DNA from: Helianthus annuus
Lineage: Eukaryota > Streptophyta > Magnoliopsida > Asterales > Asteraceae
Reading direction: 5' to 3'
Length of the DNA: 64,000 nucleotides
Assembly (NCBI RefSeq): GCF_002127325.2
Contig: NC_035436.2
Location: 84,317,716 to 84,381,715 of the forward strand
Each line of letters begins with the position of its first letter. Position 1 is the first letter of the stretch. Shown here piece by piece: positions 1 to 31,857 of this stretch. The notes beneath the pieces were generated by a model that made no database searches, was not told the origin of the DNA, and was given only the letters and a program-made list of their open reading frames with translations. The translations under genes were made by a program, and so were the position numbers.

Positions 1-1
1 T

Positions 2-2944
2 GAAATCACCGAGAATGCAGCCAAGCAGCACATCGCGTTACTGGCATCAGTTCTGGAAGCTTATGAAGGTTTGGTCGCTGGTAGGATCGGTAATCCCGAT
101 ATGACTAAAGAGGATTACGATCAGATCGATCCGGAAGAACTGGAACTGATAGATATAAAGTGGTGCATGGCGAGTCTGGTTAGAAGAGCACAACGCTTTA
201 TGGAAATCACGGGTAGAAGTAGTCTGTCAGGTCCTGATCAGAAATTAGGGTTCGATAAGTCAAAGGTGACTTGTTTTAAGTGCAAAGAACGAGGTCATTT
301 CAAGCGCGAGTGTCCGAATCGTGAAGTGCAGAATCATCAGAACCCGTTCACCAATGATTATTACAGACAGGCTATATATCACCGCCCAAATCAACAATCT
401 GCTGTTCAGAGACCTCAGATTGAAAACAAACCAGAGAAGGCACTTATCGTAAACCAAGATGATGAAAAAGTTGCGTCTGGGTTTAGTTGGGACAAGTATG
501 TTTCAGGAAAGGATGATCGAGCAATGATGGCTGAGGTAGTTGAAATTACCGAGACAGTTGCAGAGTCGAAGGTTAGCGATGAAGTGGTTACTGAGAATGT
601 CAGTGAAGTAGTTTCTGAGAGTGTAGTTGAGTCCGATTCTGAGGTGGTTCAGGAAGTAGTTACCAAAATGGTTGATTCTATTACTGAAATTGTGATCGAA
701 GAGGTTATGGAAGTTGCTGATCAGGTGGTTCCAGAGGTTGTCAAAGAGGTTTCTACAGATAGTTCTGCAAAAGCTGAGGAATCTGTGACTGAAGTTCTCA
801 ACTTTCAATCACGGCAGGAGGAATTTGTTTATACAATGAAATCTATTTTGCCTCCTAACGTCTTTGATTCTTTTGCAGATTATTTTGAAGAGCCAAGAAC
901 TGGAATGTGTCCGAGATTTGAAGCTGAGAAAGAAGCAGTTGAGGAGGTGATCGACGTTTCCAAAGTGATGACTGAAGAAGCTCTAAAGGAGATTGCAGAT
1001 AAAGCATTGATGAGCAAGTTGAAAGAGGTAGACACAGATTTCCAGGAGTCAGTTGATAAGATGTCAGGTCTAGGAGAGGAAACTGGAGTCATAGAGGTCA
1101 ACGTGGTCAAGTCGTCTGAGTCGAAGTCAGATCTTGTTGGTAAAATTGTTTGTGAGGATGAGATTATAGTTGAAAAAGTTTCAATCCCCGATACATCGTG
1201 TCTAAGTTGTTCACAACCATGCACGGGGTGTCTTGAAAAAGACACCAAGTATCAGGAATTAAAACAACATGCAGATTTGGTGAAGTTCGACTTAGAGCAA
1301 GTAAAAGAGGCTTACGACACATTGTCTAGGTCAATAAAAATGATCCAAAAAGAGAGTCTTGAAAATGATAAAGCAACAAAGTTGGCACAATCAACTTTAT
1401 TTGATAAACAAAGAGAAGTCAACTTTCATTTAGATACGATCGCATCTTTGAGAAAAGAGCTTGAGTTGACTAAAATTGAAAATGATAGAATTGATCAGAA
1501 ATTGATGAGTTATGTGGCATCATCGTATGTGTTAGAACAAATAGTGCCACAACAGCCACATGCTTCACATGTCTACAACAGTGTTCCACCCCCAATGTGG
1601 AATCATTATACACAGAAATATCCAGATGGGGTGGAAGCTGCATTAAACATCAAATTAAAAACACTTGAGAATGATTTACCTGATAACATTGATATCACTT
1701 TCACTGCGTCTGACACTGACAACGAATCCCAGGTAATCAAAAATGTTATTGATCAGGTGTTGGACGATGATAGTGAGAAATCTGAGAAGGCAAAATCAGT
1801 GGAGTCCGGTAGTGATTCTGAGGAGGACGGAAACTTTTTAGATCGTTATTTGACAAAAACGGATAAAAGTGCGGATGATGATTCAATTATGATGGTTTAC
1901 ACTATGGTTGGATCTGACAAACTTTACTCCAACACCGAGTTTCCGCTTCAGAATGTTAGATTTGAGAATGTTCAGAAAGTGTTTAAGCTGATTGAGCTGA
2001 GCGTAAATGAGTTAAAGAAAAATGATTTCTTTTCAAAACTGAATAAGCCAGTTGGTTTGTCAAAGGTAGAGGGGGTGGGTAAAAACCAAAACAAGAAAAA
2101 TCAGTTAAAGAATAAAGGACTTGGTTTTGAGAAGAAAATGACTAAGAAGGTGGTCAAGCCAAAAGACAGGATGGATGATGTGTTTGTCGCTGGTCCTAGC
2201 ACTGAAATTGAAAAAGATTATATCTTTAGTCAAAAGGCCGTGGACGACTTCAATGCAGCGCAAAAGCTAAAAGTGGAAACTGTCACAACCACTTTTGTAG
2301 AATATGATAAGCGTGTGTGTTATCGCTGCAATGAAGTTGGCCACATGGCGAAGCAGTGTAAGAAAGTGATTGAAAAACCGGTTGTGGTAAAAAATGTTAA
2401 TAAACAAATGGTTGAAAAACCGAAGGTTGAAAAACCTAAGGTTGAAAACAAAAATGTTTCAAAACAAATCATTCAAAAACCTCGACCAAAATCACCGGTC
2501 GTTACAAAAGATAAACAAGTGTTGGTTTCGCCGATCCGAATTCTTAAACGGGGTGAAAAATTGAAGTCGGAGGATAAGCCAAAATCGATTTTTGAGATTA
2601 GCGAGTCTTCTAAATATCTCAAGACTTCGAAATTTTACCCTAAAGCAAAAACTTTTGAAAATCAGTCATGGGTCGCGAAATCTAAACCATCTGGTGAGAT
2701 CAAAAAGATGGAAAGTGTGTTGAAAAATGAGTCACATTTTGTGAAAGATGATGTTGCGGTGTTTGAGTCTGAAATTGATCAGTTTTTGTCAGAATTTCCC
2801 AAACTTCATAACAAAGTGAAACAAGATAAAAAGGAAATTGAGTCAAATGTCACATTTAACTTTCCAAAAACAAGTGAGAAATGCAATGTAGTTTTTGGTA
2901 CAGTGTCAGAAGCTAAAAAGTCATGGGCATCATTGTTTAACTGA
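2..2944 (+). CDS. gag: copia-1 gag polyprotein, C-terminal part
   Basis: The frame is open from base 2, so the start is outside the window. Visible parts in order: a CCHC zinc knuckle (CFKCKERGHFKREC) near 270-315; a long Val/Glu-rich acidic stretch (about 520-800); a Cys cluster (CLSCSQPCTGC, about 1198-1230) followed by a coiled-coil-like region (1240-1530); a Ser/Asp/Glu-rich segment (1690-1860); and a second CCHC knuckle (CYRCNEVGHMAKQC, about 2318-2360) in a Lys-rich tail. Gag packages element RNA into cytoplasmic particles, and the knuckles bind RNA. Nearly 1000 residues with two separate knuckles is far longer than ordinary copia gag but fits SIRE-type elements. The frame ends in TGA at 2942-2944, and the protease frame overlaps it in +1. 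Confidence 0.85.
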   Translation, partial: EITENAAKQHIALLASVLEAYEGLVAGRIGNPDMTKEDYDQIDPEELELIDIKWCMASLVRRAQRFMEITGRSSLSGPDQKLGFDKSKVTCFKCKERGHFKRECPNREVQNHQNPFTNDYYRQAIYHRPNQQSAVQRPQIENKPEKALIVNQDDEKVASGFSWDKYVSGKDDRAMMAEVVEITETVAESKVSDEVVTENVSEVVSESVVESDSEVVQEVVTKMVDSITEIVIEEVMEVADQVVPEVVKEVSTDSSAKAEESVTEVLNFQSRQEEFVYTMKSILPPNVFDSFADYFEEPRTGMCPRFEAEKEAVEEVIDVSKVMTEEALKEIADKALMSKLKEVDTDFQESVDKMSGLGEETGVIEVNVVKSSESKSDLVGKIVCEDEIIVEKVSIPDTSCLSCSQPCTGCLEKDTKYQELKQHADLVKFDLEQVKEAYDTLSRSIKMIQKESLENDKATKLAQSTLFDKQREVNFHLDTIASLRKELELTKIENDRIDQKLMSYVASSYVLEQIVPQQPHASHVYNSVPPPMWNHYTQKYPDGVEAALNIKLKTLENDLPDNIDITFTASDTDNESQVIKNVIDQVLDDDSEKSEKAKSVESGSDSEEDGNFLDRYLTKTDKSADDDSIMMVYTMVGSDKLYSNTEFPLQNVRFENVQKVFKLIELSVNELKKNDFFSKLNKPVGLSKVEGVGKNQNKKNQLKNKGLGFEKKMTKKVVKPKDRMDDVFVAGPSTEIEKDYIFSQKAVDDFNAAQKLKVETVTTTFVEYDKRVCYRCNEVGHMAKQCKKVIEKPVVVKNVNKQMVEKPKVEKPKVENKNVSKQIIQKPRPKSPVVTKDKQVLVSPIRILKRGEKLKSEDKPKSIFEISESSKYLKTSKFYPKAKTFENQSWVAKSKPSGEIKKMESVLKNESHFVKDDVAVFESEIDQFLSEFPKLHNKVKQDKKEIESNVTFNFPKTSEKCNVVFGTVSEAKKSWASLFN

Positions 2945-4097
2945 TGTGTGTGTGTGTTGTTTGCAGGAGCGGCCCAAGTCTGTGCTATCCAGGTGGATAA
3001 TGGATAGCGGAGCGTCGAGGCATATGACGGGATCCTTAGCTCTATTATATGATGTCAAATCAATTAATGGAAGCTACGTTGGATTTGCTGGTAACCAAGG
3101 TGGCAGGATTGTTGGTCAGGGAAAGCTCACAAACGGCATCATATCTTTTGACAAAGTGAATTATATTGTTGAATTGACAAACAATTTGTTAAGTATTTCA
3201 CAAATTTGCGACAAAGATTTTAGCGTACATTTTACAAAAACAGAATGTTTGGTTTTAAAGCCAGGGTTTAAAGTCCCTGATGAGTTAGTGCTGTTGCGTG
3301 CTCCTAGGGTTAATGATCTTTACATTTTAGATATGAGCACTGCAACACCAACAACTCCTCAAAAACAATGTTTTGTGACAAAATCTAAAGCAACTGAGAA
3401 AGAGTCAATTATGTGGCACAGAAAAATGGGTCATATACACGTTCGTAAAATGAATTTTCTTGTGCACAATGATTTAGTAGAAGGTGTGAATGTTAAGAAT
3501 TTTCATTTACCTGACGATTGTGTTGCTTGTAAGAAAGGTAAACAGGTACGGAAGTCTCATCCGCTAAAGATGATCAACACTATCCGGTTACCTCTCGAGA
3601 GATTGCATATGGATCTCTTTGGGCCGGTTAACGTCAAAAGCATCAGTGGAGATTCTTACTGTTTGGTGGTTACGGATGATTACACAAGGTTTTCATGGGT
3701 TGTTTGTTTGGAAAAGAAGGACGAAACATTCGATGCTTTGATGGTTTTATTCAAAAAGATGGAAACAGTGTACAAGCTGCCGATTAGAAGAATTCGGAGT
3801 GATAACGGAACGGAGTTCAAGAATAACAAAATGTACGAGTTCTGTAACGAGAAGGGGATACTACATGAATTCAGTGCGTCGTACACACCGCAGCAAAACG
3901 GTGTGGCTGAACGAAAGAATAGAACCCTGATCAAGACCGCACGTACTATGTTGGCAGATTCAAAGCTTCCGATTTTCTTCTGGAGTGAAGCAGTGTCAGC
4001 AGCTTGCTATACACTGAATAGAGTTCTGACAGTGAAGAAATATAAAAAGACTTGTTTCGAGTTGCTGCATCGCTATAAGCCAAATCTTGAGTTCTAG
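2895..4097 (+). pseudogene. pol: copia-1 pol, protease and integrase part
   Basis: Starts in a frame +1 to gag. The aspartic protease active site is DSGA (about 3003-3014). A GAG-pre-integrase zinc region follows (H..H..C..C, about 3418-3540), then the integrase core with its three acidic residues in sequence: LHMDLFGPV (about 3605), RSDNGTEF (about 3798) and NGVAERKNRTL (about 3900). The frame closes at 4097 because one T appears to be missing near 4095; the next frame carries on directly with the normal copia sequence (EPFGSPCTF). Protease cuts the polyprotein and integrase joins cDNA to the chromosome. The conserved ATG-free junction with gag suggests the two were made from one RNA, but whether by frameshift, splicing or only after mutation cannot be told from one copy. 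Confidence 0.85.
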
Positions 4098-6302
4098 AAC
4101 CTTTTGGCTCTCCGTGTACTTTCATAGATGCTGATGGTAAATTCAGAGCAAAAGCGAATGAAGGATTTTTCGTAGGTTACGCCAGCCCGTTAAAAAGGGT
4201 GTTTGTACCGTGTCTGGGGAAGGTGATTCAAGTCCATCACGTGGATTGTCAAAAGCACACTCCGTCGCAACAACTTCCCGGACAAAGATTCCTATTTGAC
4301 TACGACAAACTCTGGGAATCGTTTCATCTGCCGTCCGAGCCGAGTGAGGAGGAACTTGCTCTCATGTACTTGTATCAGCAAAGTCAGTTGCAAGAGCCGG
4401 AATCTAGACCGCTGGATGTTCCTACGCCCACCGTGGGTACTCACGATGATGAAGCTGGACCAAGTGGAACCGTTCATATACCGCCAGAGGTACCAGAGGA
4501 ACCAGCTCCATCATTTGACGTTTCTGACGACTCAGAGGAGGAACCCGCTCCTACCTTTGACGAGGAACCAAATGAGACATCAGAGGAGGCTGTTGATCAA
4601 ATCGTTGATCTCGATATTTCAAATCTGGAATCGGAAGTTGTAGTGCCTGATACTGTGATGCCACGGACACTGTCTTACCACCCTTCAGAACAAATTATCG
4701 GCGGTTTACAGAGTGGTGTCAAAACAAGACATCAGATAGACCAAGCTTTTACATGTTTTTATTCAGATATTGCTGATATGCAGAAAGAAGTCTCATTCAA
4801 ATGTTTTATTTCACAGATAGAGCCCAGGACTTACAAAGAAGCATCGACTGAAGACAGTTGGGTGAATGCTATGCAGGAGGAACTGCAACAGTTTGAAAAA
4901 TTGGGCGTCTGGAGACTGGTCGATCTGCCGAAGAATCAGAATTTGATAAAAACAAAATGGGTGTTTAAATGTAAACGTGACGATAGAGGAGTCGTGGTGA
5001 GGAACAAAGCACGTTTAGTGGTTCAAGGCTTCAGCCAGCAGGAGGGTATAGACTATGAAGAGGTTTACGCGCCGGTCGCAAGGCTTGAAGCTATTCGTAT
5101 TTTTCTTGCCTTTGCATCCTGGAAAGATTTCAAAGTCTATCAACTCTATGTTAAATCCGCATTCCTGTATGGCAAGATTCGAGAAGAAGTTTACGTGGGG
5201 CAACCACCGGGGTTTGCAGATCCACTAAACAAAGACAAGGTGTACTTACTGGATAAAGCATTATACGGTCTACACCAGGCCCCGAGAGCCTGGTACGAGA
5301 CTCTTTCAACCTACTTGCTGGACAACGGGTTCACAAGAGGAACAGTAGACAGTACCTTGTTCACAAAAGAAGAAGCAGGCCACTTGCTGATTGTGCAGAT
5401 CTACGTTGATGATATAATTTTTGGTTCCACCAACGACGATTTGTGTAAAGAGTTTGAGAGAGTAATGAAGAAGAAATTCGAAATGAGTTCAATGGGGGAG
5501 ATGAAGTTCTTCCTCGGGCTGCAGGTAGAACAAATGCCCAACGGAATCTTCATTCACCAATCAAAGTATGTAAAGGACGTGCTCGATAAGTTTGATATGA
5601 CAGATTGCAGTCCTGCATCAACCCCCCTCGCACAGAACCATGGTATTTGTCCGGATGAACAGGGAGTGAAGATGGATGAAACGTTATACCGATCGATCAT
5701 TGGGTCTTTAATGTATCTTACAGCTTCCCGTCCCGACATCATGTACCCGACATGTCTGTGTGCACGATATCAGTCGAATCCGAAGCAATCGCATCTGACG
5801 ATCGTCAAACGCATCTTACGGTATTTGAAGGGTTGCCCAAGCATCAGCTTGTGGTACCCTCGTTCGGGTGATTTTACCTTATCCAGTTTCGCTTATTCAG
5901 ATTTTGGTAGTTGTAAACAGAACGCAAAGTCCACCACTGCTGGGTGCCAGTTCTTCGGAACTCGGCTTGTTACCTGGCAGTGCAAGAAGCAAACTGCAGT
6001 CGCGCTCTCCACGTGTGAGGCTGAGTACGTCTCAGCCTCTAGCTGTTGCTCGCAGATCCTCTGGATCCAACAGCAGATGCGCGACTTCGGTCTGTAATTC
6101 TTGGATACGGTGATATTTGTGGACAATGAAGCGGCCATAAATGTTACTAAAAATCCGGTTCACCATTCGAAAAAAAAAACACATTGAAATCCGTCACCAT
6201 TTTATTCGAGATTGTCACGAAAAGAAATTAATACGGATTGAACATGTGGGCACCGATGATCAGAAAGCTGATTTTTACACGAAACCGTTTGATAAATTTT
6301 AA
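4098..6302 (+). pseudogene. pol: copia-1 pol, reverse transcriptase and RNase H part
   Basis: The integrase tail and an acidic Pro/Glu linker (about 4330-4620) lead into RT (about 4830-5600) with [16 protein letters not shown], the YVDD catalytic box (5402-5413) and FFLGLQV, then RNase H (about 5690-6300). Three lesions: in the first RT catalytic motif, normally QMDVKSAFL, the Asp codon is TAT at 5147-5149, giving Tyr; an in-frame TAA at 6095-6097 cuts RNase H; and a run of ten A at about 6170 shifts the frame of the last 40 residues, whose normal end (KPFDKF) can still be read up to TAA at 6300-6302. Loss of that Asp removes a metal-binding residue, so this copy could not make cDNA even if the other lesions were absent. 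Confidence 0.88.
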
Positions 6303-7740
6303 GGTTAAATGGGATGAAAAATCTGCAATCTGGGAGGGTTATCGAGTGTGAAGCCGAATTGGGCGGCGATCTGACTTGAACCGTATTAGGTTGTCAACTT
6401 TTGTTTGTATAGTTGTATTTTTTTTCTGCTTTTCGTTAAAAAACAAAAACACAAAAATATGTTTTAGTTTTAGGGGGAGATATTCGCAGAAAAATACAAA
6501 AACATGATAAAACCTTAAAAATCCAAAAACATTAAAAAATGCAAAAAGAGCTGTGTAATATAGGGGAAATGATAGTACATCAGCTAGACAGGCACAGTAC
6601 GCTAGAGATATGTAATGTATTAAATGCAATTAAGCAGTCTCGCTAAAGATGTGCCGGTAGGTTCTTACAGAATTAGTAGATCAGTTTGGGATATAAACTA
6701 AATTTAACTTGCGTTTTCGTGGGGAACACCTCCAGGATATATAGGTAACCCCTGAAATCCTGTTTGAAAGGTCCCGTATTCTGAGATACTAGGTCTTTAT
6801 GCTCGGTGATATCTGGGGTATTATCCCGGGACTTCTGCTGTATGGAAATACTGACCTAGTCCCCGGATAATACTTTACGTAAAAAGCTTTGAAACATAAG
6901 CTTCACCCTCAGCATGCTGATGAAACAATAAAATTGATAGTCGCTGCTGTTGAAATGCAAAAGATCCTCTAAAGGGGACCCACCGAAAAGTCGAGCCGTC
7001 ATCTCTCTGCTGAACGGAAGTTCTGACCTGAGCTCTCACGGTTTCGCATCTAACCCCAACAGATATCAGTCGTGGTATATTCACCTGTAAGACTGAATAC
7101 TGGGATCCGGATACGGGAGTATATACTGAGGTGGGAACACACGTTAACGTTTAAGTCTCTAAAACATTAATCACGTATCCCAAACAGATTGAAAGTTTTA
7201 CGAGAATTTAAAATGGATCAATATACCGACAATCAACGCGAATTGCTTAATGCTTAAAATGAAATAAGCTTAACGGTGCTTGTGTTCTGTCGGCAGCTGA
7301 TATGATCCCCTAACACGCTCAGAAAATTATTGTGTGTATATATTTCAGTTTGTACAGCTTTAAACCCAAAAAGATTTTCTTTTCTCATTTTAGTTTCGAC
7401 AACTGATACTGGGGATTGGAAGTTCAAAGCCCGTGTGCAGATCATGTTAGTGCCTGATGAGGGTTGGGTAAGCTGTGATTGCAAACAAAGATCTGGTATG
7501 ATGTTTGAAAGATAAAATGTGCAAATGTTTGAAACGTCAAAAAGTTCATTAGTTTGAACTGATTTTAAAAACAAAATGACAGAGTACTTCATAAAACTGA
7601 TCAACCAGGGCCATTAACTTGGACTTGGTAGGTCAAACAGCTGTCCAGGGTCATTAACTTGGACTTGGTCAACTGGGTGTCAGCGTGTGAAATTGAAAAA
7701 GTTGGAAAAATGATTAACAAATGAATTTTTGAAAAATAAG
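6303..7740 (+). other. copia-1 spacer between pol and third ORF
   Basis: No credible coding frame. It holds a polypurine-tract-like AGGGGGAGA at about 6472-6480, very like the true tract beside the 3' LTR (12631-12640), and an imperfect 40-bp tandem repeat around the words CATTAACTTGGACTTGG (7611-7670). The rest is unremarkable. SIRE-type elements commonly carry noncoding sequence here. Confidence 0.6.
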
Positions 7741-7745
7741 AAACA

Positions 7746-7890
7746 GGTTCGCTCTTTTGTCACCATCGGTTCGCTTATTTGTCAAAGTAACACGTTGGTC
7801 CGCTCATGAGGACATGTCGAATAAGCGGTCCAGACCTTATATAAATAGAGTAGGGGTCCGCTTTTGTTGCCATTTCTAGACCGCTTATAC
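7746..7890 (+). promoter_or_regulatory. LTR-like internal promoter ahead of the third ORF
   Basis: GGTTCGCT at 7746 and 7768 is followed by an inverted pair, GGTCCGCT (7797-7804) and AGCGGTCC (7824-7831), then a TATA box (TATATAAATA, 7838-7847), 6 bp beyond the pair. The same order, inverted GGNCCGCT/AGCGGNCC then TATA 8 bp on, occurs in the 3' LTR of this element (12815-12865) and in the related solo LTR (35659-35710). Two more half-sites (7855, 7879) follow, then GAGCGATCCTC (7914-7924), which the solo LTR also has downstream of its TATA box (35720-35730). I infer a promoter derived from LTR U3/R sequence, placed to drive the ORF starting at 7998. Confidence 0.6.
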
Positions 7891-7997
7891 GTCAATCTCT
7901 CTCAGGCGATTTCGAGCGATCCTCTGTGTTCATCGTGATTCACTGCTGATTGAGCCCTGTTTTCACTTGATTTTGATAGATTTCTACTGATTACATC

Positions 7998-10900
7998 ATG
8001 GGCAAGGTAAGTTCTCACTCAATTTGATCTCAGTTTAGCTTAAACCTGCTTGTCGGCATGCTTTGGTTGAATAGATCATGTTTAACCGTCATATTTATGG
8101 TATTGCTTGTTGTTTCAGTGTCGTATGATGATATTAAGAGTGGTATTACATGTTAACTGTTGAGATTTGAGCGATTGATGAGTGTTGTCGGCAATGCATA
8201 GTTTCAATCTCAGATCTAGGGTGATTTAGGCATGGTTTGTAGAAATCAAAGACACCCTTAGTCTCGGAATTCTGTGTAGATTGTGTTTCTGTAATCAATT
8301 TCAGGTTTTTAGCAGTTTTTACAAGTGTTGAAGTAGGACCGCTTTTGTAGACATTCACCATTAGGACCGCTCTTATGTACATCTTGTAGGACCGCTTTTA
8401 CAGTCATGTAGTTCAGGATCGCTCATAAGACATCTGTAGGACCGCTTATAAGAACCATTATAGGTCCGCTCTTATGACATCTTTCAGGACCGCTCATGTG
8501 TACTATATCAGGTCCGCTTTTAAGGCAGTAAAATGTTGATTCGCTTATTTGGCCAGGGATGGTTCGCTTTTTGTGCATTTTCTAAGTAGGTTCGCTTTTT
8601 AGTCACTATAGTGGTTCGCCTATAGGGTTGTGAAGTGTTGGTTCGCTTTTAATGTATCATGCAGGTTCGCTTTTTAGTCAGTAATAAACATGTAAAATTT
8701 TTCTAAGTCTTGATTTCTGTTGTTGTTGTGCAGGCATCGCCAAACGTGTTATTTGATCCAGTACACAACAGTTGTATTGATTTAGATGTGGAGAAGTGTC
8801 CTTTATTGTCAGAATTCAGCAGCATTTTGGATTATATGAATCATATTCCAGTGAAGAAAGCAATGATTGACCAAAGACCATTGTATAGATCACATATTAG
8901 TCGATTTTGGACAAACACAAAGTATGATGAGGAAAGCAAGGTGATATCATCAGTAGTGGAAGTGGATGGAAAGTTGGAGACTATTTTGGTGACTGAAGCC
9001 TTAGTTCGTGAAGTTATGAATTTTCCTGATGAGGCCAACTACCCCACAAGATTTCTGGAACGTATGGTGAAGGGTTGTATGCTGCGTTTGGGATACAGAA
9101 ATACTTTGAACACCGGAAATTACTTGAAGTCAAAGTTTCAAAAATCTTTCAAGTTCTTGATCCATTGTATTCTGATTTCATTGAGCCACACAAAGGGCAG
9201 TTTCGATCAGATGAGAGATTACCAAATGAACATGTTAACAGCGTTGGTGTTGAATAAGAAATACAATTTTTCGCACATAGTTTTTCATTATATGGTGGAG
9301 AATCTCACGTCGGATGTTAGAACCTTGAGATATCCGCGTTTTGTACAAATGATGATTGATCGTGCATACCCTGGAATTGATAGAAACATTAAGGGTGATC
9401 TTCTTGTTCAAGCTCACATGTCTAACAACACTTTGAAGAATCTGGTCAAGTATCATCCTAATCATCCAGAGCCTGATCTAGTGATTGAAAACTTTGGATT
9501 GCTTAGAGATGCGAACTATGTGGATCCTGATCCGGAAAATCATCAGAATTGGAGAAATCAAGAGGAAATGAAAGAGGCGTTGTATGCTGTAGAATTGAAA
9601 ATACTTCAGAGTGTCAAACCAACCAAGAACGAGTGGTATGTAAAGGAGTCGGGGCGTAGACGTAGATTTGCAACTCCTGTAGCTGAAGGTGAAGGTTCTT
9701 CGTCAAAACCGAAGAAGATACAAAAGAAGAAAAAGCAAACAATGTTAGTTGATGAATCTGATGAAGAAATTCCTGAGTTGAATGTTGAAAATGAACAAGA
9801 GACGACTGGAGCTGAAAACATTGTAATTGAGACAGATTTGTTTACAACAGAAGCGTATTTTGTTGATAATGTTGTGGAAACGGGTACTTCTGATGTTCAA
9901 AAAGAAAAAGAGAAGGAGTTAGATGATGTTGAAGGTGACGACGTTGATAAAGATACTACTAGTTCTTCTAGTTCGTCTGATTATGAAGTGATTGATGCAA
10001 AAGAACGTGAAAGACGAATGAGAGAAGAAGTAGAACAAGAGAGGTTGATTAGAAAGAGAAAGAGGGAAGAGAAAGAAGATGCACCTTATGAACCCTCTCC
10101 GGAGCATGTTTCAGTGTCACAATCTTCTCCGAAGGGTAAAAAGAAAGCTGCTAGTCGAAAGAGAACTACACCAAAGATCAAAGTGTCGAAGCGTCCTCAG
10201 AAGATCAGGCAAACACACTCTACACCTTCACGTCAACCAACACCTCCACAATCTCCAATACATCAATCTCCTCCCAGACAACCAACACCACAACAATCAC
10301 CAAGACAACCTACTCCTCCATCACACTCAACACCACCCAGACAGCCTACTCCACAACGACAACCATCTCCTCTGTTTCAATCAACACCACCTCCACATCA
10401 ACCATATTATTCTTCGCAAGATCTCTTTGGCACACCTCCACTCACCCAAGCACAACCTGGTTCTTCAAGTAGAGGCCTTCCGATACCGCAAGATAATCTG
10501 CTAGACGTTGATTTCGATTTTGCAAACAATTCTCAAGTATTGAAATTGGAAAAGAGAATTGATGATGTGATAGCAGAAAATAAAAAGTTGGCGGATGAAT
10601 GCAAAAAAAATTGCTGAGAGAGAAAAGTCTCTTGCTGGTAAGGTGCAGAGGTTGGAGGGTGAAAACAAAGTGTTGACACTGAAAATTGAAGTTGATCAGA
10701 CAGAAATTGACGTTCTGAAAGTTCGAGTGTCTGAATTAGAAGAAGAGAAGAGTCGTCGAGAAAGTGAAAATGAGTACTATAAGTTGAAGAATAAAGAACT
10801 TATGGCTGCTAAAGCGTTACATGAACATAAGTTCTACATGCTGAATAGAGTTGTGGAAAGTATGCTAGAGACATCAGTGGAACAGAAATATGAAGAGTTG

Positions 10901-12595
10901 AAGTTAGAAGACCTTCGTGCAGAACGTAAAGCAGAATTAGAAAGGCAGATGAAAGATAAGGGTAAAGGGGTGGAAGGAAGTTCTGTAATGTCTATTGTAC
11001 CTTCAATGGTAATAGATAATCCTGAGCCTATATCTGCAGTTCCTGGTATAGTCGAAGAAGAATCACCAACGCCTAAGTTAATTGGTGGTGAAGATGAAGA
11101 GGATGATGAAGATGATGATGAGGATGAGTTTGTTTATTCTGCGAGCAGTCACAGTTCTAAAGGTGATGATGATGATGACGCTGCAGGAGGTTCAGGTGTT
11201 AGAGTAACTAAAGCTTCAAATGAAAAAGTCGTTGAAGATCTGCTAAACGACACAGTCAATGAAGAAAGTGGTGAAGCTAAGAGAAAGGGGGAGTCGAGTA
11301 AGACTCAGATTGTAGAACATCATGAACCTTTGTTCTTACGTTTAGATGTGTATAGGGAAATGTTAAAAGATGTAAATCCCGAGATTCCAATTGATCTTGA
11401 AGCTGATTTGGAATCGTTTGATATCAATAAACAGCAAGATTATAAGTATGATTATGTTGAGGATGCTGATATCTACGATAGAGTTGAGGTTGAAGAGTGT
11501 AATGAAGAGGTTTCTGAAGATACTTCTAAACTTCCAACGTTAATGGAGTTCTTTGCTGCTGAAAATAGAGATGAATTACGTCAGAAAGTGACTGAAGCAG
11601 TGAATGATAATGTGTTTGAATGTTTGAGGAAAGAAGCTGAGCAGAAAGATCAATCTAATGCTGATAAAGAAGATCAATCGAAGGCTGAAGAAATTGATCG
11701 TTCTAAATGGTTTAAAGATTCTCATGAAAGAAAATTCAAGAGGCCGCTGAAGTTCTTCCAACATGATAGAAATGTTTCGCTTGGCGATATTATTAGTTGG
11801 GGTTTTCTTCCACAGGTCAACGCTTATGCTATTAGAAGAGAATATGGCGTCCAGTATTTTGCACGTTTATATGATATAATGTCATTACCGTGGTGGGACG
11901 TTGATGAATTAGCAAAAGTGAGGGTCTTGGAGTACAAGGTGAGACAGAATGATACCGCGATGTGGGGCTACATCAAGTATGAACAATTGAAGTCGTTTCG
12001 AAAGTGGAAGCCTCATCGTCCAAGACGTGTTCAGAGAATTGATCCGGAAACTGGAGTTGTAGAAGTCATTCTGAATGTGAAACCTCCACGTACAATGAAG
12101 ACAATTCCGATGCCAGAAATGGAACAGGATTTTTATAAAGGCTTTATTGACTGGGTGTACAGTTGCAGAATGACTGAAGCTATAATCACATACAGAGCTG
12201 GTGGAGAGCTGAGGGATATTCATGTTTACGACCCGATGTGGTTAGTTAATTGTTCAGCGAAAGATATTGAATGTCTATTCATTCACAAGATTCGCTACTC
12301 TCCAGCAGATAAAGAGCAAGCTCTTCAGTTCCAACGTGTTGTATCACTGTGTATTTAGAAAGGAATCAACTCTGAAAACAAGTGGAAATCCTCGTGGTGG
12401 TCTTTAGAAGAGAAGATGAGGAAGAAATCAAAGCGTGAACGTGAACGTGATAATCAAAAGATGGAAGAAAATAGAGGAAAGTTTATGAAGGAACAAGAAA
12501 AGGAAGAAAAGGCGAGGAAGATCAAGAATGAGAAGATCAGAGTTGCTCTGAGCAGAAAGCCAAAACCAAAGGAAGAGAAATTCAAAGCTATCTGA
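7998..12595 (+). pseudogene. copia-1 third ORF (post-pol, env-position protein), spliced
   Basis: Proposed exons: 7998-8006 (ATGGGCAAG) then a GTAAGT donor; acceptor TTGTTGTTGTGCAG ends at 8733; main exon 8734-12595. The joined frame is phase-correct. The protein would be about 1,290 residues: an N-terminal globular part (8740-9650) resembling the 'putative plant transposon protein' type seen in plant retroelements; a Lys/Glu-rich region; a Pro/Gln/Ser-rich region (10200-10480); a coiled coil (10520-10960); very acidic tracts (11090-11190); a C-terminal folded-looking part (11700-12350); and a highly charged tail. No signal peptide or membrane segment is visible, so despite its position it does not look like an envelope glycoprotein. 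Two lesions: an A8 run at 10602-10609 shifts the frame (seven A would restore it), and TAG at 12356-12358 precedes 78 more in-frame codons ending at TGA 12593-12595. Confidence 0.65.
8336..8675 (+). repeat. Array of GGNYCGCT half-sites in the third-ORF intron
   Basis: About 14 copies of GGACCGCT, GGTCCGCT, GGATCGCT or GGTTCGCT, all in the same direction and usually followed by TTTT or CATA, begin at 8336, 8364, 8389, 8416, 8439, 8463, 8487, 8511, 8537 (degenerate), 8561, 8589, 8613, 8640 and 8664. Spacing is 23-29 bp. Sequence between copies is not conserved, so the 8-mer itself, not a longer tandem unit, is what is kept. The first half of the array favours ACCGC/TCCGC and the second half TTCGC. 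Same word as in the LTRs and the internal promoter. Confidence 0.8.
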
Positions 12596-12642: not shown

Positions 12643-13093
12643 TGTTGATGCACAATGTCTAAAGCCTGCGTCTTTGTAATACTAGTTTAATGTATAGGGT
12701 CCAGATAGGTCATTTTGTGATAGTATAAGGGGTTAAAGTGTAAATTTATGACTTTAATGTTGTAGGTCCGCTTTTGTGGCATGTGTCCACAAAAGCGAAC
12801 CAGCTTGGTAGTCTGGACCGCTCTTGTGGACATGTCACATGAGCGGACCAAGAACTCTATATATACCCCTGTAGTAGTCTTCATTTGTAACGTCTTCGGG
12901 AACTCAACGTCGAACTGTTGTCCGTACGACAAGCGTTATAAAGTGAAGAAAGAGTATTTTAAGTGTGAATCTTCTGTTTCTACTCCTTTCTGTTACGTTT
13001 TTCTTTGTATCATGCTGAAAATGTGTTTCCGCCACATTTTCAGTAAGCACTAGCTCTGATTGACTCACTCGAGAGGTCAAAACTGATCCTACA
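12643..13093 (+). repeat. copia-1 3' LTR (451 bp)
   Basis: Begins TGTTGATGCAC and ends GATCCTACA, the same termini as the independent 459-bp solo LTR at 35465-35923 (TGTTGGTGCAC, GATCCTACA), which fixes both ends. It carries two inverted half-site pairs: GGTCCGCT (12765) with AGCGAACC (12794-12801), where the arms match for 15 bp, and GGACCGCT (12815) with GAGCGGACC (12841-12849). A TATA box (TATATATA, 12858-12865) follows 8 bp later. That layout is the core promoter of the element. Confidence 0.85.
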
Positions 13094-13912
13094 CCCTGTG
13101 ACTCCAAACTTGATTTTTGATGCGTTTTGGCACTTCTAACACCTGTCAAGGCCATTTTTAAGCTCCATAAGGATGTTAAAACATAGGGAACTTGAAATAT
13201 GATCGGACACGTCACGGATGTTGTTTCGTTTGGCTGCACAGTTGCGTTGTTCGGTTAATTATGACGGAAATCGTAACGAACGCGTGTATGACTCAAATTG
13301 CGAAACGAATGAAGTTTTAGCATTAAAATTACTAAAATAAAATATTTTAATGATTACAAAAATTTTTGGATGTCCGGAAATGTTCAGAACGTAAGATATG
13401 CGCGTAAATGCAAACTTATGCACTTTTTGACGCTTTTAGTCCTTGTTGATCAAATAAGTTTATTTTATCACACCGAACCCCTCAAAGCTTATTTCTAAGC
13501 TATGTAAAGGATATTTAGGGTATGCTTAACTTATGATCATGTTTCGGAAGGTACGTTACTAGATGAATCAGCAGACTTTTGCAATTTGACGCAAATAGTC
13601 CCTATGAACGAATTAACTTGCTTTTGCCATACCAAACCCTTCAAAACTAATTTCTAAGTTATGTAGAGGTTATTTAAGGTATGTTAAGATTATGTTGATG
13701 TTCCGAAGTGTTTGTCGCATTAAATTGATTACGCTTATGCATCTGTTTGCGTATAACTTTCTAGAAAGCGATTTAGAGTTTGAAACTGAACAAGGATTGA
13801 ATGAGAAGTTGTCAAACGTAATTAAACGAATATAGGGATCAAAATACATTGTTTTATTGAAAATTGAACTATTCAGAGTTTGTATGATGATTACACAAGC
13901 ACAGGTGTGACA
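13094..13912 (-). repeat. Part of a gypsy 3' LTR (minus strand)
   Basis: On the minus strand this begins TGTCACACCTGTGC at 13912, immediately after a polypurine-like tract (GTAGGGGAGAC, complement of 13913-13923), as expected for a 3' LTR start. It runs to 13094, where copia-1 interrupts it. Contains no ORF. Includes two diverged repeats around the words ACTAATTTCTAAGTTATGTA (about 13480-13530 and 13640-13690). Confidence 0.6.
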
Positions 13913-14370: not shown

Positions 14371-14680
14371 TTGCAATGTAAGAAAGCAGTCAATATAAAG
14401 TTAAAAACCGACACAACTGACGTTTTACCAGAAAACATCGATGTCACGTTTACCTCGTCCGATACCGATCATGAGTCTGAGTTAATTAAGAAGGTGGTCG
14501 ATCAGGTGTTGGATACTGATGAGGAGTCCGAGTCGAAATCTGAGTCTGAAGTGCCAAAGTCGTCAGTCAATAGTCAAAATTCGTCGGTTAAACGGTCTTA
14601 TAGTAAAGAATTTTTGTTATCAAAAGCAGATTTGAATGATGAAACATTCGAAGTTGTGCTCGAAATCTGTCTCACTTAGA
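14371..14680 (+). pseudogene. Copia gag scrap (third SIRE-like copy)
   Basis: About 100 codons. The residues NIKLKT, the segment ENIDVTFTSSDTDHES and KKVVDQVLD align with copia-1 gag (about 1648-1770: NIKLKT, DNIDITFTASDTDNES, KNVIDQVLD). Both ends stop abruptly with no LTR, so this is an internal fragment. It joins gypsy leader sequence at about 14685. Confidence 0.75.
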
Positions 14681-18660: not shown

Positions 18661-21317
18661 ATGGCAAACTTTCAAACCTGGAATACTGCTTTCAACATTG
18701 GGTCTATGTCAAAACCTCCGACTTTGGTCAGAGAGAAGTACCCTCAATGGATAATCAGGATGATCAATTTCCTAAATGGATATGATCAAGCACTGTTTCA
18801 ATCCATTGTGAGAGGCCCACATATACCCACTGTTGAAATACCGGCAGTTCCAGTAACTGAGCACACACCAGTTATTCCTATCTCCCTGGCTCCCAAAGGT
18901 GAAATACATTGGAGTCAAGAAGATAAGGATCTTGTATCTGCTGATGAAAGGGCCAAATCACTTCTGATTATGGCACTTCCAAACGACATATTTTCACAAG
19001 TAGATGCTTGTGCATCTGCTAAGGAAATATGGGGTCAACTGGAAAATCTTTGTGAAGGAGCAGAAAGAATGAAAAGAAACAAGAGAACTAACCGTGTTTT
19101 TTCATATAAAAGATTCAAAAGTCTCCAAAATGAGACTCTTTCAGAAACCTATCATAGGTTCACTAAACTTTTATATGAGCTTAAAAAGTTTGGTATTGAA
19201 AAATCAAATGATGAAAAGAATGTTAAGTTTCTTTGATGCACTACCAAGAGAGTGAAGAAGTCTCAAAATGACCTTGGCATCAACCCTTGAATTAGGGAAC
19301 ATGAACTTACATGATCTTTACAGCATCCTTGTCCCAAGAGAGGAGGAAATCTATGAAAATTCAAACCACAAAGGTGGACCTATGCTCTTGTTTCAAACAC
19401 ACAAAGAGTATCAATTTCAGATCCACAACCCTCTCAATGCCAGAACATAGAAAATTCTGATTCTTCATCAGATTTCAGCCTTTGTTGAGGCTATAGCTTT
19501 GCTCATAAAAACGTTTGAGCAAAGTTTGAGAGGTGGGAGTGGCAAATTCCAGAAGAATGATAGAGGGAGGATGGAAGGAAAGTCAAGAGATAAAGGGAAG
19601 GCAGAAGTTGTTTGCTACAGATGCAAACAAAAGGGGCACTATGCTTCTAAATGCATGAACAAGAAGCTGAAGGATGTGTCCTTTTATGAAAAGATACTTC
19701 CTCCGGATCGTCTTCGAACAATTCAAGCCATGGTAGTGGATTTTCATCATTTCCAACTTTTGAGCTGAATACACCGATGCAAAGTCCTCAGTCCTCACGG
19801 AGCTCAAACAACCATACAAGCCAAAATAATCATAATCCACATGTCATCCAGTGCGACATTGATGTGAATCTACAAAATACTCAAGGTTTTAACGAATCAG
19901 CAACAAAGGAGCACATGAAGTTTCTTGCATCCGTTCTTAGATCATATGAAGGTTTAGTTACGGAAGGATTGGAAACCCAAATATGACCAAAGAAGATTAG
20001 GATCAGATAGACCCAGAAGAATTGGAGATGATCGACATCAAGTGGTGCAAGGCTACCATTGTAGAGGTTTATGGAAATAACTGGGAGGAATAGTCTTGCA
20101 GGTCCGGATTCAAAGCGAGGATTTGGAAAATCTAAAGTCACATGCTTCAAGAAAGAGGTCATTTCAAGAGAGAATGTCCAAATAGAGAAGTGTAGGGAAA
20201 TAACAATCTGTTTGGTGAAGACTACTACAAGAAAGCTATCTACCGCAAGACTTCTCAACATCCACCAAGCACGTCAAGACCAATTCAAATAGAACATGGT
20301 TCATCCAAAGCAAAGGATAAGGCATTGGTCGTAACACAGGAGGATGAGGGTTTTAATTGGAACAATTATATTCCAAAGACCGAAAGTCTTGCTATGTTGG
20401 TTGAGATTATTGAAGAGCCTGAACAGATTGTTGAGGAAGTAGTTGAAGATGTTGGTGATGAAGTTTGTGGTGAATTTTTTTTATGAAACTCCAGATGATT
20501 ATAATTCTCAATCTCATGAGATGTTACATAATGCATTCAAATCCATCATGATTATAATTCTGCATCTCATGATATGTTACATAATGCATTCAAATCCATC
20601 ATGATTATAATTCTGAAACTCCAGATGATTATAATTCTGAATCACATGATATGTTCAATTCTTCTGCAGGTTTCTTCAATAACCAAGGAAATTACAGTGG
20701 AATGCATCGTGAAGAAGAGAAGAAAATACCTGTGGAAGAGATCATTGATGTGTCAAAAGAAATGAATGTAGAAAATTTAGCTGACATTGTTGAAAAGGCC
20801 ATGATGGCTCAACTGAAAGAGGTTGAGAAAACCTCTGAAAAAGAACAGACGGTCGAGTCAGTCAAAGATAATGGTGAGAGTGAGAAAATGAAGACTCAGT
20901 TTCAATGCTTGAAATGCATCGAACCATGCAAATCCTGTATTGAAAAGGATGAGAGATTTAAAGAACTGAAAAAACATACCGATAACCTGATGAGTGATTA
21001 CAAAGAAACAAAAGAAGCTTATGACAAACTAAGCAGAACTATCAACCAATCCTGAGATGCGGGTCAGGAAAATGAAGCCACAATTTCTATGCTCAAAGCA
21101 ACTGTGATGGATAAACAAATTGCCATTAATAACTATATTGACACAAATGCAAAACTAAAACAAGAGCTAGAAAATGTTAGGATTGAGATGGAAATGGTTG
21201 ATAAAAACTCATTAGTTATTCAACAGCTTCTTATGTTTTAGATCACATTCTTCCAAAACCAATCGGAAAAGATGAATTTGGGGAAGATGTGTACGGGTAC
21301 GGTAATAAAGGTTTGAG
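18661..21317 (+). pseudogene. copia-2 gag, left part, interrupted by the LINE
   Basis: Starts at ATG 18661, 69 bp after the PBS. Order matches copia-1 gag with the missing N-terminus added: the copia gag domain (EKYPQWIIRM, SLLIMALPNDIFSQVDACASA, YHRFTKLLYELKKFGI), a zinc knuckle (CYRCKQKGHYASKC, about 19614-19655), EHMKFLASVLRSYEGLV, MEITGRNSLAGPDSK, a Cys cluster (CLKCIEPCKSC, about 20908) and a coiled-coil-like region. At least five frameshifts or stops (for example 19236, 19450, 19985, 20290, 21053). About 20477-20640 contains a threefold repeat of a word near CCAGATGATTATAATTCTGA. The frame is cut at 21317 by the LINE and resumes at 39364. Confidence 0.85.
21304..21317 (+). repeat. LINE target-site duplication, left copy
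   Basis: AATAAAGGTTTGAG, identical to 39350-39363 at the other edge of the LINE. It abuts the poly(A) tail (20 T on this strand). Confidence 0.95.
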
Positions 21318-21432: not shown

Positions 21433-23484
21433 CTACAACATATACAAAGGGTATTTATACCAGTCTGACCATCTAATAGATTTACAAGAGAATCTATTTC
21501 TAACCCATGCAAAACTTCTCGCTTTTAACTCCCATATGATATCTTTCGGGTCACAATTTTTCTGGTTGAAAACCACTTCATTTCTCTCTTTCCAAATGCA
21601 CCAAGACGTTATTAGAGCCAACCCATAAACGATTTTCTCCTCCTTCTTACTACACTTGATGAATTTATGTATCTCTAAAATGTCTTTAAATTCAAAAAGG
21701 TATAGAGGCGGGATGTTGCACCACTTACTGAACGCCGACCACACCCTTAAGGCTACTGAGCACGCGGTGAACAAATGCTCAACCGATTCCTCGGTCTCAT
21801 CGCATAAGGGACACATAGAAGAAGATAATACCACATTCCTTTTTCTTAAATTTACTCTAGAAGGAAGTCTATCCAGATTGCCTCTCCAATTCATAATATT
21901 GCATTTAATAAGAACCCATTTACACCAAGAAAAATCTGGAGGATGACAGTTACCTCTATCCTTCAACAACGCCGATTTGACATCCTTCACTGAGAAACCC
22001 TTCTGACTATCCCCACTCCAAATCCAGGCATCCTTGCCGACAGAAAGCCTCACCATACTAAGCACCTCGCAACATTCCTTCCATTCCTTAAGCTCCTGAT
22101 CCGAAACAGGCTGTCTAGACCACTGCCATTTGAACACTCCATTTCCTCTAGTGATATCCAGTCTCTCAGCCACCCTGCACAATTTAAACAACTCCAAACC
22201 AAATAATTTGGGCCACCTTTCCCAAAAGAGAAGATCACCCACCCAAATATCTATCCAAAACCGAATATCAACCCCATTCCCGACTTTACCTTTTATTATA
22301 TAATTTAAACCTCTCCCATTAATTTTCACTTTGGAAATCAGATTCACAATATTTTTCCAGCACCCCGAAATATTATTGTTGAAAGGAAGAAAGCTCATTT
22401 GGTTCTTCTTACAATGACACGCTTCAACCAATTTACACCATAGATTTTGACTTTCAGCTCTATATCTCCACCCCCATCTAACAAGAAGGGCTTCATTGAC
22501 CTCTTTTAACCTGCTAATACCCAAAACAGAATTTATCAAAGTTAGCCTCCCCCCCCCCATAGATAAAGTTTTAGCTTTCCACGTCGACAATCTGTTATCG
22601 AAAATCTCAAAAATGTGAGTCCAGTTGTTAATTCTGTTCATATTCGCCCCCACCTTAATTCCCAAGTAAGTAAAAGGACCAGTATCCGGTTTGCACCCAA
22701 TCACTTTAGCCATATCAGACACAGACCCATTATCCACACCCAACCCGTATAAAATTGATTTTTGCAAATTAATTTTTAAGCCCGAGCATAAATAAAAAAT
22801 TCTCAAACATCTAGCCACATTCTTAACATTAACCCTATCCCACTCCCCCAGCACGAGTGCATCATCAGCGTAAAAGAGGTGAGAGATTACCGGACCGTTG
22901 TTGGGAGTTTGAATACCTTTGAAAAGACCTTCCATCCTGGCTTTATACAAAATGTTAGACAGTGCTTCCATGACTAGTAGGAACAGAAACGGGGAAAGCG
23001 GGTCGCCCTGTCTGACCCCTTTGGAGCAATTGAATTCAAAAGTGGGGGACCCGTTTACAAGAACCGAGGATCTCGCAGACGCAAGTATCCCTTTAATCCA
23101 CTTGCACCATAAATCAGGAAAACCCATTTGCCCCATGATGTCCAACAGAAAACCCCAGCAAACATTGTCGTACGCCTTTTCGAAATCAATTTTAAGCAAA
23201 AAGGCCTTTTTATTATATTTTTGAATCCACGCCATAACCTCATTAAGAATTAACGGACTGTCGAGAATGTATCTCCCTTTAAGAAAAGCCGACTGATTAT
23301 CCGAGATGATAGACCCAATAACCATTTTGAGACGATTGGCCAAAATCTTGGAAATAGATTTGCTAATAACCCCAATCAGATTAATGGGCCTATACTCTCT
23401 CAGCCCCACCGGATCCTTGTTTTTAGGAATGAGGGTTATGAAGGAAGAACTGCATCCCGTAGCTATCGTACCTTTGCTATAAAA
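21433..23484 (-). pseudogene. LINE ORF2, reverse transcriptase and zinc-binding part
   Basis: RT blocks can be followed: LITLIPK, REYRPINL, KTIFEKAYD-type block (KIDFEKAYDNV), GVRQGDPLSPFLFLL and the catalytic FYADD (about 22865-22880). Then a C-terminal zinc-binding region (CPLCDETEESVEHLFTAC, about 21755-21810). Between LTLINSVLG and ISRLKEVNEALLVRWGWRY, at about 22530, some 50-60 residues usual in this family are missing without loss of frame; an LG...G repeat at the join suggests an internal deletion. Stop at 21433-21435. The 5' side runs into gypsy-2; the frame stays open across both insertions and joins the endonuclease part. ORF2 nicks target DNA and copies the RNA. Confidence 0.88.
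23480..23484 (+). repeat. gypsy-2 target-site duplication, left copy
   Basis: TAAAA, repeated at 35438-35442 after the right LTR. Five bases is the expected length for Ty3/gypsy. Confidence 0.9.
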
Positions 23485-26400: not shown

Positions 26401-27063
26401 TATTCCTAGCATATTCCTGGAATATTCTTAGCATATTCCTAGCATATTCCTGGAATATTCCTAGGTTTTCTGCGTTGTCTGCGTTTTGCAGTGTAAGCAC
26501 TGTGTCGCGTAGGAACACACGGTACGTGCTTAAACTTGAAAATAACGTTTTTAAGCGTTTTAATTTATTTTTCAACACGAACCTGATTAAAATAAAATTT
26601 TAATCATAACAGAATATTTGTGGGATTAAATATTATCCGGGCGGCCATCAACGTTCGTTTCGCAGTTTTGTCGCAATTAGTTATGCTCTTAAAATGTGTT
26701 TCGGGTGCTTTTTAGTGCTTATTTTTGCTTTCATATAGCATATATATTAAACCCTTGTATGTACTCTTGGGTTTTAATGTATTCTTGTTATTGGACCTAC
26801 ACCTAGGCTCCAATTTTATTGTCTGACTGCTTTCTGCAGTTCCGTTGACACAGTGTGTCTTACCGGTGAGTTTACTAATATTTTTGACGCTACGCTCTCG
26901 TTTTTGCATAAAGCAATATTTTGTAGTATAAAACGTACATGAATTCACTTGTATGGAATTCAGAAACTTATTTCTCTTGTAAACTAGATCATGTATGTTC
27001 ATTAAGGCACAGATCACTGTTCATTTAGTGTACGGAATGTACGGAAAAGTGACGGTTGTCACA
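23485..27063 (-). repeat. gypsy-2 3' LTR (3,579 bp)
   Basis: On the minus strand begins TGTGACAACCG and ends GGGTGTGACA. Contains four internal repeat blocks: a 42-bp unit three times (23911-24036), a 19-bp TGTCGATTACCCTCGAC-type unit six times (24040-24152), an AATTATCAACAATAATCATC-type block (25205-25310) and a GGAATATTCC/AGCATATTC block (26265-26462). A TATA box for minus-strand transcription (TATAAATA, complement of 26233-26240) lies just downstream of the last block. Small ORFs here are repeat translations. Confidence 0.95.
26265..26462 (-). repeat. U3 repeat block of GGAATATTCC/GCATATTCC words
   Basis: About 17 copies of AGCATATTCC(T/A) and GGAATATTC words at 11-12-bp spacing, ending 25 bp before the TATA box on the minus strand. 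GGAATATTCC is its own reverse complement. Identical block in the other LTR at 34638-34835. Confidence 0.85.
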
Positions 27064-31842: not shown

Positions 31843-31854
31843 GCTCTGATACCA
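31843..31854 (-). other. gypsy-2 primer binding site
   Basis: The minus strand reads TGGTATCAGAGC, an exact 12-base match to the complement of plant initiator tRNA-Met, 3 bases after the 5' LTR. Confidence 0.95.
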
Positions 31855-31857
31855 AAC

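What the first reader, a model, noticed from the sequence alone, without database searches (positions are those of the whole stretch)
7746..8740. Third ORF of a SIRE-like copia element with its own LTR-derived promoter and a spliced start
Seen: paired GGTCCGCT/AGCGGTCC then TATATAAATA at 7797-7847, the same order as in two related LTRs; ATGGGCAAG/GTAAGT at 7998-8012; an acceptor TTGTTGTTGTGCAG ending at 8733; and an exact in-frame join to the main exon. Known: env-position proteins of SIRE-type elements are usually assumed to be made from the genomic or a spliced LTR transcript. Inference: this lineage has duplicated U3/R sequence inside itself so that ORF3 is an independent, separately regulated, spliced unit.
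Basis: partly seen in the sequence, partly recalled or inferred. Interest (0 to 1): 0.82.

Follow-up and report, generated by a model that had tools for sequence, protein, structure and literature searches.

The report
Retrotransposon ORF3 with LTR-like internal promoter
In sunflower, a group of copia (SIRE-type) retrotransposons carries a third gene preceded by a promoter-like copy of the element's own LTR core and a short intron, and the splicing of that intron is shown by integrated copies that lack exactly it.

Summary
The window lies in a ~15-kb SIRE-type copia element of Helianthus annuus (XRQr2). Upstream of ORF3 are a palindromic repeat, a TATA box, ATGGGCAAG|GT and, 727 nt later, AG|GCATCG, joining in frame. 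Splicing is shown by a natural experiment: a provirus with LTRs and target-site duplication (L027) lacks exactly this intron; genome scans find 8 such junctions against 442 exact donors. The 33 codons before the first downstream ATG have dN/dS 0.05, so the spliced start is probably translated. The internal module resembles the LTR only over ~50 bp (palindrome plus TATA). No transcription start was shown; no RNA data were available. Palindromes upstream of ENV and a possible internal promoter were already reported for Sireviruses (Bousios 2010, no promoter conclusively identified). Real; a new variant of a known kind.

The parts
1..6100 (+). gag-pol part of the element, interrupted in this copy (open stretches 71-2944, 2895-4097, 4199-6097); the 5' LTR lies outside the window at C4:84315755-84316205
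   Evidence: (zinc knuckles, integrase core, RVT_2)
7746..7775 (+). two direct GGTTCGCT motifs upstream of the palindrome
7797..7831 (.). palindromic repeat GGTCCGCT...AGCGGTCC, like the LTR palindrome at 12815-12849
7838..7847 (+). TATA box of the putative internal promoter
7848..7997 (+). inferred start site region and 5' leader of ORF3 mRNA (start itself not shown)
   Evidence: position relative to TATA and ATG; inference
7998..8006 (+). exon 1 coding part, ATGGGCAAG (Met-Gly-Lys)
8007..8733 (+). intron, 727 nt, phase 0, with 12 GGWYCGCT motifs at 8336-8671; absent exactly in L027
8734..12358 (+). ORF3 exon 2, interrupted in this copy (open stretches 8710-10617 and 10595-12358)
12643..13093 (+). 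3' LTR, 451 bp, one difference from the 5' LTR; palindromes 12765-12801 and 12815-12849, TATA at about 12858
13094..13098 (.). target-site duplication CCCTG, matching the flank of the 5' LTR

Best explanation
7746-8733 is the promoter, leader and first intron of ORF3. The palindrome plus TATA acts as an internal RNA polymerase II promoter built like the element's own LTR core and read by the same trans-acting factor as the LTR (inferred). Transcription starts about 30 nt after the TATA (inferred), gives a short leader and a 9-nt coding start (MGK), and the intron is spliced (splicing at these sites shown) to put this start in front of ORF3. The 3' LTR supplies the poly(A) site (inferred). The intron carries further motif copies and may enhance expression (inferred). 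Longer RNA, in all likelihood the 5'-LTR genomic RNA, crosses the same intron and is sometimes spliced and reverse-transcribed (shown by intronless integrated copies).
For: Exact intron absence in L027, with LTRs (3 of 451 differences) and TSD ATAGT; 8 joined junctions genome-wide (1; 7, of which 3 exact and 4 with one mismatch, control 0), against 442 exact donors; dN/dS 0.047 in 33 codons before the first downstream ATG, 4.4 and 4.1 in the other frames; 16 of 120 listed relatives begin MGK in public gene sets; LTR-like core; palindrome-to-TATA spacing of 7-8 nt in 10 LTRs and 5-9 nt in 18 internal modules, TATA-to-ATG 154-174 nt in 21 of 22; motif changes in LTR and internal module together. 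[quoted passage not shown]
Against: No RNA 5' ends. Intronless copies keep DNA upstream of the TATA, so their RNA did not start at the internal promoter. In the biased set the non-coding stretch 7400-7740 is hardly more diverged (5-6.5% between groups) than the palindrome (0.8-5.4%), so palindrome conservation alone is weak. Within class A an element's LTR is not always most like its own internal module (W LTR: 44 with its own, 53 with C3). In the B lineage 3 of 19 intron-bearing loci lack AG at the acceptor. [quoted passage not shown]
Confidence: 0.72

Rival explanations
1. ORF3 is made from a 5'-LTR transcript by a second, long splice from a donor in the leader to an acceptor upstream of 7998, as for retroviral env and as reported for barley Bagy-2; palindrome and TATA have another role.
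For: Env-like mRNAs of other plant elements are spliced (passages). Spliced RNAs that started upstream of the TATA exist (L027).
Against: No copy lacking leader-to-7998 was met, but none was searched for. The rival does not explain a TATA at fixed distances from both palindrome and ATG, or the LTR-matched motif.
Confidence: 0.15
2. The palindromes and repeats are RNA or DNA elements for something other than transcription (packaging, reverse transcription, integration, binding of Gag); the TATA is incidental.
For: Motif arrays also sit in the transcribed leader (10 copies here) and in the intron (12); they change with lineage as binding sites would.
Against: TATAWA lies in the expected window for 89 of 95 donors against 4.4-4.8% expected, and the same palindrome-TATA spacing recurs in the LTR, where it is the expected promoter.
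Confidence: 0.1
3. Relic: an LTR fragment was trapped upstream of ORF3 and spread passively by recent amplification.
For: Many copies are young (LTR differences 0-11 of about 451 in the 10 pairs), and a trapped LTR upstream of an ORF3 exon 2 does occur elsewhere (L056).
Against: Same layout in lineages whose ORF3 proteins are 55-63% identical and whose motifs differ; exon 1 plus donor differ by 1.0-3.9% between groups whose leader and intron differ by 16-33%.
Confidence: 0.03

Closest known systems
Repeated motif (RM) boxes of Sireviruses upstream of ENV (Bousios et al. 2010, PMC2829016; passages and section 9 read)
   Same: Palindromes with CCG/CGG cores upstream of a TATA box in the LTR and again upstream of ENV; one consensus per element for both places; an internal promoter suggested.
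   Different: There no promoter could be conclusively identified; the parts read describe no TATA, start exon or intron next to the ENV copies. Here these are present, the splice is shown, and the motif class is compared lineage by lineage inside one host.
Foamy virus internal promoter and Tas (PMC3798896; passages read)
   Same: Two promoters, LTR and internal, each with TATA, in one retroelement; both answer to one factor; response elements differ between virus species.
   Different: There the promoter lies in env and drives the transactivator gene, proven by experiment; here no transactivator or start site is known.
VANC anti-silencing motifs of VANDAL transposons (PMC5735166; passages read)
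   Same: Short motif arrays in non-coding DNA, including introns of element genes and upstream regions, that differ between families.
   Different: DNA transposons; the binder is known and demethylation proven there.
Maize Grande gene23 (cited in PMC7264820 and PMC11963269; passages read)
   Same: Extra gene between pol and 3' LTR with its own promoter.
   Different: Ty3/gypsy, antisense gene; not described in the passages as LTR-like.
SIRE1 stop-codon suppression and Bagy-2 / Athila env splicing (cited in passages)
   Same: Ways of expressing an ORF located after pol.
   Different: Neither uses an internal LTR-like module as described there; here about 2.6 kb of non-coding and intron sequence separate the end of the pol open stretch from exon 2.

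Membership tests
Sirevirus (Ty1/copia, SIRE lineage) | copia order: integrase before reverse transcriptase, with Gag zinc knuckles | tested here: met
   zf-CCHC (2 stretches), rve and RVT_2 in that order along the window
Sirevirus (Ty1/copia, SIRE lineage) | PBS complementary to initiator Met tRNA (TGGTATCAGAGC) after the 5' LTR (identity of the tRNA recalled) | tested here: met
   ATTGGTATCAGAGCC follows the LTR; the same or one base different in 10 other copies
Sirevirus (Ty1/copia, SIRE lineage) | palindromic CGG-CCG motifs in LTR and upstream of the ORF after pol, TATA downstream in the LTR | tested here: met
Sirevirus (Ty1/copia, SIRE lineage) | multiple identical polypurine tracts before the 3' LTR; reverse-transcriptase phylogeny | not tested
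   PPT-like GGGGGAG seen at the 3' LTR junction, not counted systematically; no tree built
Envelope-like protein | transmembrane segment | tested here: not met
   best 19-residue hydropathy mean 0.96 in both open pieces of this copy (usual cut-off about 1.6, recalled); 6 of 120 relatives reach 1.6. The piece after 12358 was not tested. Crude test.
Foamy-virus-like internal promoter | TATA-containing internal promoter sharing motif with the LTR | tested here: met
   sequence level only:
Foamy-virus-like internal promoter | mapped internal transcription start and an element-encoded transactivator | not testable with these tools
   no RNA or binding data
PF20167 putative plant transposon protein domain | score above the Pfam cut-off of 45 bits | tested here: inconclusive
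   2 of 7 relatives match weakly (25.7 and 16.8 bits); this copy's pieces do not

The most novel reading that the evidence does not exclude
These plant copia elements run a two-promoter circuit like that of foamy viruses: an element-encoded sequence-specific protein, plausibly ORF3 itself (no clear transmembrane stretch in this copy, basic clusters in most relatives), binds lineage-specific palindromic arrays in LTR, leader, internal promoter and intron, activates or de-silences both promoters, and binder and sites change together between lineages. Against: Sireviruses without ENV also have the motif in their LTRs (Table 3), so ORF3 in cis is not required.
Probability: 0.2. Interest if true: 0.87.

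Novelty: new variant of a known kind. Interest (0 to 1): 0.63.

Why it matters
How Sireviruses express the ORF after pol is an open point: an internal promoter was proposed but not conclusively identified (PMC2829016). Here a precise candidate (motif, TATA, start exon, splice sites) occurs at hundreds of loci in one crop genome. The integrated intronless copies show that longer RNA is spliced, and their rarity (8 junctions against 442 exact donors) raises the question why the intron persists in an element that copies itself through RNA. The motif that changes in LTR and internal module together points to a shared, lineage-specific regulator whose binder can be looked for directly.

Tried and rejected
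Structure of the ORF3 N-terminal region (P0061 with 27 relatives): mean pLDDT 36.5, so no fold search was made. Pfam gave no confident family for ORF3. The row '9134-9499' was out of frame and is ignored. In 'L027 leader 0 motifs' is an artefact: only about 64 bp of leader lay in the fetched piece; whether L027 also lacks the leader array is open. L018, L034, L037 (no homologous exon 2) and L027 (intronless) were left out of the divergence and dN/dS counts (36 of 40 kept); 2 of these 36 (L020, L022) have a stop among the 33 codons. The orientation test failed for 17 of 20 loci and was redone. L101 showed no PPT; L102 showed a PPT but no palindrome in the 480 bp after it and was not counted as an LTR. 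I looked whether intronless loci could be retrocopies of an ORF3 mRNA that began at the internal start: the six read all keep DNA upstream of the TATA, so this direct proof of the promoter was not found. L080's 5' LTR was not settled (nearest candidate 44 kb away, 92%). Class C LTRs were inferred from spacing and not read. Promoter/terminator and RNA-family scans were not used.

Full report
What the window holds. The window is G000:C4:84317716-84381715. Contig lengths given for sunflower XRQr2 protein records equal those of G000 (208320189 for chromosome 4, 149542083 for chromosome 7), so the host is Helianthus annuus XRQr2. The element has LTRs of 451 bp at C4:84315755-84316205 and window 12643-13093, differing at one site, with CCCTG on both outer flanks and a PBS TGGTATCAGAGC. 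Its length from LTR to LTR is about 15.05 kb. Pfam gives zinc knuckles, integrase core and RVT_2 in copia order. gag-pol and ORF3 are each interrupted in this copy although its LTRs are nearly identical.

The observation. All stated features are present. LTR and internal region align over about 50 columns (score 44; 0 of 2000 shuffles, best 30; 104 other pieces of the element at most 29; intron 30). The match covers palindrome and TATA and stops there. GGWYCGCT, either strand, occurs 4 times in each LTR, 10 times in the leader, 6 times in 7746-7922, 12 times in the intron and not in the gag-pol and ORF3 stretches scanned; four more matches lie in the other 50 kb of the window. Nine of ten other copies have 8-13 forward motifs within 700 bp after the 5' LTR; the tenth, L027, could not be judged.

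Conservation. In 40 copies selected by similarity to 7701-8015, and in 17 selected by exon 2 only, start, donor, acceptor and TATA are kept in most. The copies fall into groups by intron sequence. Between the four groups with three or more members the intron before the repeats differs by 16-33% and the leader by 16-21%, but exon 1 plus donor only by 1.0-3.9% and the palindrome by 0.8-5.4%; the TATA octamer differs by 0-11.5%. The non-coding stretch 7400-7740 is also little diverged (5-6.5%), so the palindrome's conservation alone is weak evidence; leader and intron may have been exchanged among subfamilies (inference). Genome-wide there are 442 exact donors ATYATGGGVAAGGTRAG (reversed-pattern control 4). 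Of the first 95 that both capped lists cover, 89 have TATAWA in the 31-nt window upstream, against 4.4-4.8% of positions in the 64-kb window.

Splicing is real. L027 (C15, minus strand) lacks window 8007-8733 exactly: ATGGGCAAG is followed by GCATCGCC. It has two LTRs differing at 3 of 451 sites and ATAGT on both flanks. DNA upstream of the internal TATA is retained, so the spliced RNA began further upstream, in all likelihood in the 5' LTR. Scans for the joined junction find 1 place for the L027 type (the reversed-pattern control found 2 at up to one mismatch, but this hit is exact and lies in the family) and 7 for the types with SNV after the junction (3 exact, 4 with one mismatch; control 0). 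Six of these 8 were read: L027, L080, L103, L118, L119, L120. Their upstream motifs belong to different classes. L080 is 92.0% identical to intron-bearing L081 over 997 nt of exon 2, and L103 is no closer to L080 (81.4% of 161 nt) than to intron-bearing L082 (82.5% of 160 nt), so the intron was probably lost more than once. Three of the seven lie within 0.25 Mb on C12 and may be one event copied; two of those were not read.

The spliced start is probably used for translation. The first in-frame ATG of exon 2 is at 8836. In the 33 codons 8734-8832 before it, dN/dS over 36 copies is 0.047 (pS 0.177, pN 0.009); the two other frames give 4.4 and 4.1; codons 8836-9133 give 0.15. Two of the 36 copies have a stop among these codons. 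Of 120 listed relatives, 16 begin with MGK, from several Helianthus annuus gene sets, H. debilis and H. anomalus. These are gene predictions; other relatives begin elsewhere or with other predicted starts.

A second lineage has the same layout. P0061 is 56% identical to the window's ORF3 over 56% of the query. Of 20 loci of its lineage, 19 have ATGGGAAAG and one ATGGGAAAT; L080 is intronless; of the other 19 all have GT at the donor (15 in the form GTRAG), and 16 have AG at the acceptor, 3 do not.

The motif differs between lineages in LTR and internal module together. In six elements with both read (W, C3, C17, C11, C16, C4b) GGWYCGCT is in both (LTR 2-4, internal 1-6) and the TTTCG type in neither. 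In the P0061 lineage five LTRs have 7-9 TTTCG-type sites and no GGWYCGCT; these LTRs are that of L080 and four found by similarity to it (L114-L117), of which L114 and L115 lie at LTR distances from L096 and L093. Sixteen internal modules have 3-9 TTTCG-type sites and no GGWYCGCT, and 15 introns 8-15 and none (the module of L081, which has other DNA upstream, was left out). Local scores, LTR against internal module: A with A mean 34.5 (26-59), A with B 20.7 (16-33), B with A 18.4 (14-31), B with B 30.0 (22-52); the ranges overlap, and within class A an element's own pair is not always the best. Palindrome-to-TATA spacing is 7 nt in nine and 8 nt in one of the 11 LTRs (pattern not found in one), and 5-9 nt in 18 of 22 internal modules; TATA-to-ATG is 154-174 nt in 21 of 22 (73 in L086). 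A third class, CTCGYRYGANYTGG before CTATAWA, has 64 matches (control 0); 23 of them have ATGGGVAAGG at the right distance. Some others lie at LTR-like spacings, for example C4:38963261 and 38976439 on either side of a donor at 38968042, and C2:64497167 9.5 kb upstream of an internal module. These class C LTRs were not read, so the third class is probable, not shown. Phylogenetically this is at least one joint change (A against B), two if class C holds.

How it most likely works. Shown: the intron, its exact splice sites, splicing of longer RNA, purifying selection on the N-terminus, an LTR-like core, and a motif that differs jointly. Inferred: that polymerase starts at the internal TATA; that one factor reads both promoters; that intron arrays enhance. 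Exon 1 lies about 9.5 kb downstream of the 5' LTR and behind gag, so ORF3 needs its own start or a long splice; the LTR-type core makes the first more likely.

Compared with what is known. Bousios et al. 2010 (passages and section 9) reported palindromic boxes upstream of ENV in nine Sireviruses, with one consensus for LTR and linker copies of each element, and supported an internal promoter without conclusively identifying one. MASiVEdb (passages) lists stop-codon suppression and internal promoter as ways of ENV expression and names transmembrane and coiled-coil domains as what ENV-like genes share; by a crude hydropathy test no transmembrane stretch appears in this copy. Foamy viruses use LTR and internal promoter with one transactivator (passages). 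Grande gene23 has its own promoter (cited in passages). VANC motifs are arrays that differ between families (passages). [quoted passage not shown] For the Tekay/Athila extra ORFs of sunflower only outline and abstract were seen, and for the sunflower long-read transcripts passages. Searches of the held library listed no paper that I could recognise as describing an intronless Sirevirus copy or a mapped Sirevirus ENV promoter; this rests on listings and passages, and most subscription papers are not held.

Verdict. Real, conserved and partly proven; a new variant of a known kind that makes an open question on Sirevirus ORF3 expression directly testable.

Noticed in passing
G000 C12:18803565, 18883992, 19048994: Three intronless ORF3 starts within 0.25 Mb on one strand: segmental copies or a small gene cluster; only the first was read (L118).
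   Followed up: partly
L056 (C10:54767784-54770984): The PPT and LTR of a related SIRE family lie directly upstream of an ORF3 acceptor and exon 2.
   Followed up: no
window 1-6097 and LTRs: gag-pol is interrupted although the LTRs differ at only 1 of 451 sites, so this copy may have been mobilised in trans.
   Followed up: no
window 14424-14520 and 18661-21300: Fragment 72% identical to the gag stretch 1675-1771, and a further gag-like stretch with a zinc-knuckle-like sequence (by eye): remains of other copia elements.
   Followed up: no
window 23481-26838 and 31854-35212: Stretches repeated at 8373-8374 bp spacing, with 300-bp pieces 100% identical: probably a young element with long LTRs.
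   Followed up: no
window 40547-42040: A/T-rich arrays of about 10-bp units with many imperfect inverted pairs.
   Followed up: no
protein P0119: A protein labelled Salmonella enterica on a 1362-bp contig is 54% identical to the sunflower ORF3: probably plant contamination of that record.
   Followed up: no
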